From NCBI RefSeq assembly GCF_026210795.1, contig NC_089453.1:1800501-1864500 (forward strand): a stretch of DNA of 64,000 nt, in the 5' to 3' direction. Shown piece after piece: positions 22,479 to 24,648 of this stretch (the stretch's first letter is position 1; every line of letters starts with the position of its first letter). The notes below the pieces were generated by a model. That model did no database searches, was not told the origin of the DNA, and was given only the letters and a program-made list of their open reading frames with translations. Position numbers and translations under genes: made by a program. The stretch is from Rhizophagus irregularis (Eukaryota > Glomeromycota > Glomeromycetes > Glomerales > Glomeraceae).

Positions 22479-22660
22479 ATGGGAAGAGGTAAGCATAACA
22501 GTTCAAGTATGCTGTGTAAGTGTTGCTACTCTGGCGAAAATGCAATCAACTTCTCCTCACTCTTTCTTGTGAAGTGAGATTAAAGGACTACTTGTTCTGG
22601 AAGAGGAACCGGTTACGTGCCTTTATGATAAAGTAACTTGACTGAGAGTTTGAGAAGGTT

Positions 22661-22982
22661 ACCACCCTCCCCTTGTGGGAGTGCAACCACCGCTCCCCTT
22701 CGTGGGAGTGCAACCACCGCTCCCCTTCGTGGGAGTGCAACCACCGCTCCCCTTCGTGGGAGTGCAACCACCGCTCCCCTTCGTGGGAGTGCAACCACCG
22801 CTCCCCTTCGTGGGAGTGCTACCACCGCTCCCCTTCGTGGGAGTGCAACCACCGCTCCCCTTCGTGGGAGTGCTACCACCGCTCCCCTTCGTGGGAGAGT
22901 GCTACCACCGCTCCCCTTCGTGGGAGTGCAACCACCGCTCCCCTTCGTGGGAGTGCTACCACCGCTCCCCTTTGTGGGAGTT
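22661..22982. repeat. 27-bp GC-rich minisatellite, about 12 units
   Basis: Units start at 22661, 22686, 22713, 22740, 22767, 22794, 22821, 22848, 22875, 22904, 22931 and 22958. The consensus is ACCACCGCTCCCC-TTCGTGGGAGTGCA with an A/T variant near its end. The period is 27 in the middle, with a 25-nt first unit and one 29-nt unit. Each unit contains CTCCC-CTTCGT-GGGAG, a 5-bp stem. As 27 is a multiple of 3 and no unit carries a stop in several frames, long ORFs appear on both strands; these are artefacts of the period. The array lies between a possible first exon (22479-22488, ATGGGAAGAG then gtaagc) and the first clear exon of the Hsp20-like gene. Confidence 0.9.
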
Positions 22983-23051: not shown

Positions 23052-24648
23052 TGTGCTGCGGAAATCCCGAGCTCGCTGTTATGGTGGGGGTGATATTACG
23101 GGTCTCAGCACCCACGTAGTAGAAAAATATGTTGAGGAAGCAACAAAATTTAATTTCATTCATGTAGTAAAAGAAGAAGAAAAGGGGTAATTATAAACAA
23201 TTATGATTTATTTCTCTTTAAATTACTAATAAAGGTATTTTCTAGTTTTGGATTCGTACATTTTAGAACAAGACGTCAAGCTTCCTTATTTTATATTCAA
23301 ACAAGAAATAAATCATATCAATATGATGAAGACCGAGGTAGGGATCGGAAAAGATTCGATTAAAATCGAAACTATCGAAAATCGATAAGAATCAATTTTA
23401 AATCGAATCTCGAATAAAAATCGAATCTACTTATTGTGGCGCAGTTTCGTTAATTTGACCGTAAATTATTATTTGTTCATAATAGTTAATTTTGGCCAAA
23501 TTCATAATTCCGCCCGCGAATCACGTGACGGAACACAAACTTCCTAAAAAGGAAATTTCATCTCCCAATAAAATTCAAGTTGCTATCGCACAAGGTTGTA
23601 CAAATTTCCAAAAAAGGAAATTTTTTCGTCGATCACTGTAATTTGTAATCACGTGATATGTGTTTAAACAAACCTATTATAAATAGTATAAAAAAAAATC
23701 GGTATTTGCGAAACGATTAATCGCGATTAATCGATTTTAGAATCGATTCTAATAATGGGAATCGATTCCAATCCCTAGACCGAGGCCCATTTAAATTTTA
23801 TGCTGCGAAGTATTTTAATTCTGATCGAAAGGTTAATTATACACTGGTAAAGTTTTTTATTTTATTTATTATTATAAATTTACCTGGTGGATCTAATAAT
23901 ATAGTAAAAACTGTTTTGTTTATTTAGGATGAAGAAGCCGATATCAATGATGAAAATAAACCTAAAAAACGGAAAGTTATAGAGATTATTGATGATGATC
24001 TCAGTTCTGAAGAAAACTCCGAAACTATTCAACAAGCTCGTGAGGGTACTTATCCTGTTGCAAAAGAAGCCGCAAATATTACTGGAGAACATGTAAAGGA
24101 CTTTAGTGAAGGAAGGAAAGGTTTTCAGGAAACCGCAAAAGGTGGAGCGAAACAATTGGCCACACAATTTAAGAGCAGAGTCTCTGATTATGCCAAACCA
24201 CTTAATGTAGCGTATGGACTTTACGAAAATGAGTATGTATCTATTTAGTGCTTGACTTATCTTGTTTAATTAAATAATTCAATAATAATGTCTATTCTTT
24301 ATTCTTTATTATAAAGTTCTTCTTATATTTTAATTTTACATACACCCGGAATTGAAAATAAATCTGATCTCATGGTCACGATAAATTTATTATAATTAAT
24401 GGATCTTTTAATGAAAAAGTAGCTGGAAAAGCTATCTCAAGTAATTTACCAGTAGGACAATTCGAAGCACAAGTAGATCTCCCAAACAAGTGAGTTATTT
24501 AGTTTTATTGTTTTACAATTGCTTATAACTGACATTCATCTTTTTTAATAGAATAGAGGCAATTTCTGCCAAGATTGAAGTTGAACACGGCATATCAACA
24601 ATTACTTTAAGGAAAAGTAATACCGGAAAAATTCTTGAAATAATTTAG
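23052..24648 (+). CDS. Hsp20/alpha-crystallin-like protein with NLS and SIM-like motif
   Basis: Exons read 23052-23186, 23246-23337, 23779-23846, 23928-24232, 24317-24489 and 24552-24648, all in phase with GT-AG borders. The 5' end is unresolved; ATGGGAAGAG at 22479 may be exon 1. Exon 1/2 encodes KGFGFVHFRT, which looks like an RNP1 motif but without a full RRM. Exon 4 carries KPKKRKV (nuclear localisation type) directly followed by VIEIIDDDLSSEEN (SUMO-interaction type). The C-terminus reads LHTPGIENKSDLMVTIN, then NGSFNEKVAGKAISSNLPVG, QFEAQVDLPNKIEA and HGISTITLRK. This is the layout of an alpha-crystallin domain, including the usual 'G.ltItl.K' end. One base seems missing near 24390, so the domain is frameshifted there unless this is an assembly error. 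Confidence 0.55.
23339..23777. mobile_element. hAT-type MITE inserted in the Hsp20-like gene (candidate intron)
   Basis: The 439-bp element starts TAGGGATCGGAA and ends TTCCAATCCCTA (inverted termini, one mismatch in 12). It is flanked by an 8-bp direct repeat GACCGAGG (23331-23338 and 23778-23785). An 8-bp target duplication and TAGGG-type ends fit the hAT superfamily. AATCGATT-like subterminal repeats and two TCACGTGA palindromes (23521, 23649) lie inside; there is no transposase. The last G of the left repeat plus the element's T make GT. The element's final A plus the first G of the right repeat make AG. The exon frame is open across these borders. Confidence 0.85.

What the first reader, a model, noticed from the sequence alone, without database searches (positions are those of the whole stretch)
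23331..23785. hAT MITE whose insertion borders create an in-frame GT-AG intron
A 439-bp element with TAGGGATYGGAA inverted ends is flanked by an 8-bp repeat GACCGAGG inside a coding exon. Joining GAG|GT...AG|AC (23337 to 23779) keeps the frame and adds two codons (DRDRGP instead of DRGP). Both splice dinucleotides are made half from the target duplication and half from the element end. If retained, the frame stops within about 7 codons. This is the geometry expected of intron gain by a transposon ('introner' mechanism), which to my knowledge is not a standard observation for hAT MITEs in these fungi.
Basis: partly seen in the sequence, partly recalled or inferred. Interest (0 to 1): 0.82.

Follow-up and report, generated by a model that had tools for sequence, protein, structure and literature searches.

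The report
Jumping gene mimicking an intron
A short jumping-gene copy appears to have landed recently inside a gene of a plant-root fungus, and its ends plus the copied target bases happen to look like the start and end of an intron, so the cell might cut it out of the message; whether it really does has not been shown.

Summary
In detail: a 439-bp element (23339-23777) with imperfect inverted ends sits between perfect 8-bp repeats GACCGAGG. It interrupts an open exon of a Rhizophagus irregularis gene (very probably strain DAOM197198). Removing 23338-23778 leaves a GT-AG, in-frame join that adds two codons. The element is a genuine hAT MITE: at least 38 full-length copies, 30 with perfect 8-bp repeats, and a 4.2-kb element with matching ends that holds a Hermes-like hAT transposase. 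The copy is young (4 substitutions from the family consensus). Predicted proteins of isolates A4 and A5 read straight through the site.

The 'introner' reading is only partly supported. Any 8-bp repeat of form GN6G yields this geometry automatically, always +6 nt. GN6G occurs beside 31 of 463 TIR matches against 32.4 expected, so it is not enriched. A second acceptor at 23784 would restore the original message exactly. One other copy (L028) shows the same arrangement in an apparent exon, with clean empty-site paralogues. No transcript could be inspected, two length-limited searches found no DAOM197198 protein of this gene, and the gene's 3' part has a broken frame. Maize Ds1 is the precedent. 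Splicing is plausible but unproven.

The parts
23331..23338 (+). left target-site duplication GACCGAGG; its last G is the first base of the candidate 5' splice site
23339..23777 (+). hAT MITE, 439 bp, TIR TAGGGATCGGAA / TTCCAATCCCTA
23778..23785 (+). right target-site duplication GACCGAGG; its first G completes the candidate 3' splice site TAG
23338..23778 (+). candidate intron, 441 nt, GT-AG, adds two codons after joining
   Evidence: no transcript seen
23338..23784 (+). alternative candidate intron, 447 nt, GT-GAG acceptor, restores the original exon exactly
   Evidence: no transcript seen
23749..23753 (+). CTAAT, possible branch-point motif (A at 23752), 26 nt before the first acceptor
   Evidence: the consensus CTRAY is recalled
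22479..22573 (+). host gene exon 1 (start ATG), as in the A5 protein model P0002
23052..23186 (+). host gene exon 2
23246..23337 (+). host gene exon 3, part before the element (the A4/A5 models lack FGFVHFR, so they begin this exon later)
23779..23846 (+). continuation of the interrupted exon after the element
23928..24233 (+). host gene next exon; coding frame continues to ...YGLYENE

Best explanation
A non-autonomous hAT transposon (MITE) of R. irregularis was moved recently into an exon by a hAT transposase and duplicated 8 target bases. The element begins with TA and ends with TA, and the duplicated bases begin and end with G, so the junctions read G|TA...TA|G. They form a GT donor (GAG|GTAGGG) and a TAG acceptor, with a branch-like CTAAT 26 nt upstream. 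The spliceosome then most likely removes the element from at least part of the transcripts as a 441-nt intron (+2 codons), or uses the acceptor 6 nt further on (+0), in the manner of maize Ds1. This is a chance by-product of transposition and not an adapted introner system. Shown: family, TSDs, an element with matching ends and a hAT transposase, exon interruption, intron-ready borders, base-rate expectation. Inferred: that this transposase moves the MITE, the empty allele in A4/A5 (from proteins only), transcription, and the splicing itself.
For: Element and borders. At least 38 full-length copies plus 2 partial ones, 94% or more identical (only 40 of 297 candidates were scored); 30 of 38 with perfect 8-bp TSDs. 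Element C24:287674-291862 with matching ends, ATTAGAGC on both sides and an open frame with PF05699 matching Hermes transposase. Young: 4 substitutions and a 2-base gap against the family consensus. A4 and A5 proteins read YQYDEDRGPFKFY. Host frame open from ATG 22479 through both sides. CTAAT also occurs in two neighbouring introns of the gene, and the gene has another apparent long intron (478 nt). Second copy with the same arrangement, L028, with two uninterrupted paralogues.
Against: No transcript was available. No DAOM197198 protein from this locus was found among candidates of 110-350 aa or about 46-145 aa, although the database holds proteins of that strain, one on a contig of the same length as C5. 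The gene's 3' part is out of frame against the C2 protein P0003, so selection to keep it intact may be weak. This site's own coding score (6.0) lies just under the 75% point of random flank positions (6.2). The donor GTAGGG departs from the usual fungal consensus (recalled), and the predicted RNA fold pairs the two intron ends with each other, which could hide the splice sites. The A4/A5 proteins would also result from a filled allele spliced at 23784.
Confidence: 0.52

Rival explanations
1. The MITE simply disrupts the gene: the element is retained, the frame stops after ...DEDRGRDRKRFD, and the locus is a dispensable or decaying gene in this strain. The splice-like borders are coincidence.
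For: Retention gives a 115-residue truncated product. No DAOM197198 protein of this gene was found in two length-limited searches. Frame break further 3' against P0003; the A4 model is labelled partial and departs from P0003 in that region. 23 of the 30 family copies with perfect duplications have no GN6G on either strand, so such borders are not a family trait.
Against: The frame from ATG to ENE is otherwise open and matches the A4 protein (98% over aligned columns; 94% by BLAST). Both borders and the branch-like motif fit a GT-AG intron. The truncated form was not found as a protein either.
Confidence: 0.42
2. A true introner family: MITEs selected or built to be spliced wherever they land in genes, causing repeated intron gain in this fungus.
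For: Two apparently exonic copies (L001, L028) share the geometry and the same orientation relative to the gene. TSDs are G/C-rich compared with flanks (0.50 vs 0.30 GC).
Against: GN6G observed 31, expected 32.4 of 463 TIR matches (Fisher p 0.81, with the two ends of one element counted separately). Two GN6G among the nine best coding-scored sites is within chance (p 0.28; the cut at nine was made after seeing the list and is where L001 ranks). Insertion sites are not enriched in long ORFs (median 61.5 vs 64 aa) or coding score (8 of 38 above the null 75% point). Of 24 further GN6G sites fetched, the 10 with both ends found gave no convincing sense exon; 14 could not be assessed. Splice sites lying inside the element, as in Ds1, were not tested.
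Confidence: 0.05
3. An old intron of the gene, or an assembly error, that only resembles an insertion.
For: None found.
Against: Perfect TSD; high identity to 37 other full copies; A4 and A5 proteins and the paralogous exon L046 continue across the site.
Confidence: 0.01

Closest known systems
Maize Ds1 (Ac/Ds family, hAT), spliced from exons (Dennis 1988 and Wessler 1991, seen only as references; described in passages of PMC3260210 and PMC5432752)
   Same: Short hAT element of about 400 bp, 8-bp TSD, 11-bp TIRs (PMC3260210 abstract and passages); provides donor and acceptor sites when in an exon and begins with TAG (PMC5432752 passages).
   Different: Ds1's 3 donors and 2 acceptors lie within 35 bp inside its termini (PMC5432752 passages). 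Here both dinucleotides straddle the TSD/TIR junction, the host is a fungus, and splicing is not shown.
Introners with TIRs and TSDs (Gozashti 2022, PMC9860276; section 7 and passages seen)
   Same: DNA-transposon-like elements that make introns, some recruiting splice sites from the TSD and some adding codons (Aureococcus +12 nt, of which 8 are TSD).
   Different: Those families have 5 to more than 2,000 copies per genome as introns. Here there are two candidate sites and no RNA. That paper says ascomycete introners lack TSDs and TIRs; 'Rhizophagus' does not occur in its main text.
hAT families and MITEs of R. irregularis (PMC11075540, passages seen)
   Same: hAT families (hAT-19, hAT-Tag1, hAT-Ac) and a MITE class are named for this species.
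   Different: The passages seen do not describe this family; the words intron and exon do not occur in its main text as whole words.

Membership tests
hAT superfamily MITE | 8-bp target-site duplication | tested here: met
   30 of 38 full-length copies have identical 8-bp flanks
hAT superfamily MITE | short terminal inverted repeats shared by the family | tested here: met
   34 copies with both exact ends; TAGGGATYGGAA 463 genome matches vs 27 for the reversed-pattern control
hAT superfamily MITE | element with matching ends encoding a hAT transposase | tested here: met
   C24:287674-291862: PF05699 E 1.4e-19; Hermes E 1.2e-16. Only its ends and 1.2 kb inside were seen; catalytic residues and mobilisation of the MITE not tested
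hAT superfamily MITE | no transposase of its own, under about 1 kb, multi-copy | tested here: met
   (439 bp, at least 38 copies); one search lists no ORF of 60 aa or more lying wholly inside the element
Introner family | many copies serve as introns of different genes | tested here: inconclusive
   2 of 38 copies are candidates by a weak screen; GN6G not enriched; other splice sites not tested
Introner family | copies are spliced precisely in transcripts | not testable with these tools
   no RNA data available
Ds1-like spliced transposon | exonic insertion with usable donor and acceptor dinucleotides at the element borders | tested here: met
Ds1-like spliced transposon | splicing shown in RNA | not testable with these tools
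   no RNA data available

The most novel reading that the evidence does not exclude
A hAT MITE of an arbuscular mycorrhizal fungus has, within the species' recent history, created a working spliceosomal intron whose GT and AG are each half target duplication and half transposon end. Because TA...TA ends plus a GN6G duplication always give a frame-safe +2 codon intron, this hAT family would be a standing, low-rate source of new introns in Glomeromycotina, with an apparently intact partner transposase stretch and probable empty alleles to test it on.
Probability: 0.33. Interest if true: 0.66.

Novelty: new member of a known kind. Interest (0 to 1): 0.42.

Why it matters
If spliced, it would be a fungal intron gain caught in the act, with element family, candidate transposase, target duplication and probable intron-free alleles all known. 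Gozashti 2022 describes ascomycete introners as lacking DNA-transposon signatures (PMC9860276 passages). It also gives a general rule: an 8-bp duplication of form GN6G around a TA...TA element always makes a GT-AG, frame-keeping intron, so hAT elements with TAGGG ends can yield introns at a predictable base rate (31 of 463 TIR matches here have the right flank). If not spliced, it is an ordinary disruptive insertion.

Tried and rejected
Introner family: disfavoured on base rates and on lack of enrichment in ORFs or coding score. The codon model is weak: it was trained on 18 ORFs from the window and loci, several near-duplicates and some probably transposon-derived. It gives the window site itself only 6.0, below the 75% point (6.2) of random flank positions. 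Pre-existing intron: rejected. The paralogue L046 aligns without a gap to the +6 spliced form (DGDKERG); I considered that this might reflect an old footprint, but at 36% identity nothing can be concluded. The pair of ends 3 kb apart in L075 was tried as the autonomous element and set aside: its 8-bp flanks differ and its ORFs were not recognisably transposase by eye (no family search was run on them). Searching for a truncated host protein found nothing (a single candidate shared words). The L028 host was searched with a fused-exon query. Of the 6 proteins found, only R. diaphanus P0004 covers the insertion site, and it reads SWKDP uninterrupted; the DAOM197198 model P0006 of this gene family starts downstream. 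Pfam on the window host exons gave nothing above cut-off (best RRM_1 at E 0.05). Primary Ds1 papers PMC336558 and PMC361803 are not held.

Notebook slip: entry 3 says 12 GN6G loci had both ends found; the output shows 10 of 24.

Full report
What is there. The window is G000:C25:1800501-1864500 of a 146.7-Mb, 32-contig genome. Close protein hits are Rhizophagus irregularis. Contig C13 is 5,085,394 bp, equal to the scaffold N50 printed for the 32-scaffold DAOM197198 assembly in PMC10234402 (passages). The totals differ slightly (146,748,485 here, 146,773,001 in the paper), so I call the strain very probable, not certain. The element occupies 23339-23777 between perfect GACCGAGG repeats. Its ends are imperfect inverted repeats, 84% complementary over 19 nt.

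The family. A DNA search scored 40 of 297 candidates, all matching at 94% or more, so counts are lower bounds. Thirty-eight are full length (one from its second base) and two partial; 34 have exact ends by pattern. Thirty of 38 have identical 8-bp flanks, with a target preference of roughly N-YYY-RRR-N and 50% GC against 30% in the flanking 50 bp. The window copy differs from the family consensus at 4 substitutions and a 2-base gap, so it is young. The 12-bp end TAGGGATYGGAA occurs 463 times in the genome against 27 for the reversed pattern, so other elements share these ends.

A transposase partner. The terminal 83 bp of a longer relative (L076) finds an end at C24:287674 at 99% and the window copy's end at 95%. 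That C24 end lies 1.8 kb from a hAT dimerisation domain in a 600-aa open frame. The 8 bases left of it are ATTAGAGC, and the only genome match to the opposite end followed by ATTAGAGC lies at C24:291853-291870; one search lists that end as TAGGGATCGGAA. This gives a 4.2-kb element with hAT-type ends and duplication, of which only the ends and 1.2 kb inside were seen. The fetched 400-aa stretch of its frame matches PF05699 at E 1.4e-19 and the solved Hermes transposase at E 1.2e-16. hAT membership therefore rests on tests. Whether this element moves the MITE was not shown.

The host gene. Reading from ATG 22479, exons 22479-22573, 23052-23186, 23246-23337, 23779-23846 and 23928-24233 give one open frame. 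Isolate A4 (P0001) and A5 (P0002) have predicted proteins that run through the site as YQYDEDRGPFKFY, without the extra DR. P0001 is 98% identical over aligned columns, 94% by BLAST. Both models lack FGFVHFR just upstream. The simplest reading is an empty site in those isolates. Own-genome paralogue L046 also has a continuous exon there; L045 aligns across the region with gaps. The 3' end of the gene is out of frame against the C2 protein P0003, so the gene may be decaying.

The intron geometry. Donor GAG|GTAGGG, acceptor CCCTAG|ACC, 441 nt, +6 nt; the acceptor CCGAG|G 6 nt further gives 447 nt and +0. CTAAT lies 26 nt before the first acceptor; the same motif occurs in two neighbouring introns at 16 and 31 nt. 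The gene appears to have a 478-nt first intron (exon 1 as in the A5 model), so length is no obstacle. The candidate intron folds better than all 100 shuffles (z -6.1) and the two ends pair; that might bring the ends together or hide them.

Is it more than chance? Frame keeping is automatic: with an 8-bp duplication G1...G8 and a TA...TA element, 6 extra nt remain whatever the insertion phase. G stands next to the TIR in 123 of 463 matches, at the far end of the 8 bp in 122 of 463, and at both in 31 of 463, where independence predicts 32.4. The two ends of one element are counted separately. In the 38-copy family, 3 GN6G and 4 CN6C occur among the 30 perfect duplications. So roughly one exonic insertion in nine to fifteen would look like this, without any selection.

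A second case. L028 (C5:2993021-2993462) sits in an apparent exon reading ...LINIEELSWKDPVASL..., with sense duplication GTTGGAAG and the same orientation relative to the gene. The same splice rule would give SWNWKDP instead of SWKDP. Two paralogues, C5:5637772 and C5:3138069, match at 98% without interruption, and their DNA shows a single GTTGGAAG. The R. diaphanus protein P0004 also reads SWKDP. The donor end of L028 is mutated (TAGAG), and no protein with the extra residues was found, though only one of the 6 proteins covers the site. Splicing is therefore no better supported there. Of the 7 GN6G/CN6C copies, L001 and L028 looked coding on the matching strand, judged by eye and by the weak score. 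Of the 31 GN6G TIR matches genome-wide, 7 lay in loci already held and 24 were fetched. Both ends could be found in 10 of the 24, none in a convincing sense exon; L062, with a 134-aa sense ORF, was not followed up, and 14 could not be assessed.

Evidence against splicing. No DAOM197198 protein of this gene was found among candidates of 110-350 aa or about 46-145 aa. The database does hold DAOM197198 proteins, including P0006 by name and P0008 on a contig of 5,829,432 bp, the length of C5. Gene annotation of that assembly used Illumina and Nanopore RNA (PMC10234402 passages). This is weak evidence that no clean spliced gene was recognised there; models outside those lengths would have been missed.

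Known work. Ds1 of maize, a short hAT element with 8-bp duplications, is recorded as acting as an intron (Dennis 1988, Wessler 1991, seen as references in PMC3260210) and as offering 3 donors and 2 acceptors near its ends (PMC5432752, passages). Introners with TIRs and TSDs that recruit splice sites from the duplication and sometimes add codons are described in PMC9860276 (section 7 and passages), where ascomycete introners lack these marks. I looked for a hAT-MITE intron gain in Rhizophagus or other fungi in this library only, by listings: 25 of 238 papers, 20 of 192, 12 of 28, 12 of 132, 10 of 31, 10 of 10. None of the listed titles or abstract starts reports one; one search lists fungal introner-like elements (PMC4457414), which I did not open. 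PMC10639083 (passages) counts 75,377 annotated introns in this species; 'introner' and 'transpos' do not occur in its main text.

Verdict. A well-founded, young hAT-MITE insertion with intron-ready borders that arise at a predictable chance rate. Splicing is plausible by the Ds1 precedent but not shown, and simple disruption of a decaying gene is nearly as likely.

Noticed in passing
window 22661-22981: 27-bp minisatellite, 11.9 copies (ACCACCGCTCCCCTTCGTGGGAGTGCA), lying inside the host gene's apparent first intron.
   Followed up: no
window 24340-24440: The host gene's 3' part is out of frame relative to the C2 protein P0003, and the A4 model departs there too; the C-terminal half shares a 172-bp stretch of 98% identity with a gene on C22.
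   Followed up: partly
G000:C24:287674-291862: A 4.2-kb element with the MITE's ends, perfect 8-bp duplication and an uninterrupted hAT transposase stretch.
   Followed up: partly
L014 1501-1941: Family copy in the open frame of a gene with weak WD40-like Pfam matches, duplication TGCTGACA, which cannot form the GT-AG borders; a useful control for RNA reads.
   Followed up: no
L035 1501-1939: Older family copy in an open frame matching Pfam DUF659 at E 1.9e-14.
   Followed up: no
L009 1501-1941: Family copy in a 607-aa open frame on the other strand (empty-site reading); gene identity not searched.
   Followed up: no
L075 and L076: Longer relatives with the same TIRs: L076 (1.66 kb between identical flanks CTACAAAT); L075 pairs two ends 3 kb apart with differing flanks.
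   Followed up: partly
window 23180-23270: The exons before the element encode KGFGFVHF, like an RNP1 motif (recalled); Pfam RRM_1 only E 0.05, below cut-off.
   Followed up: no
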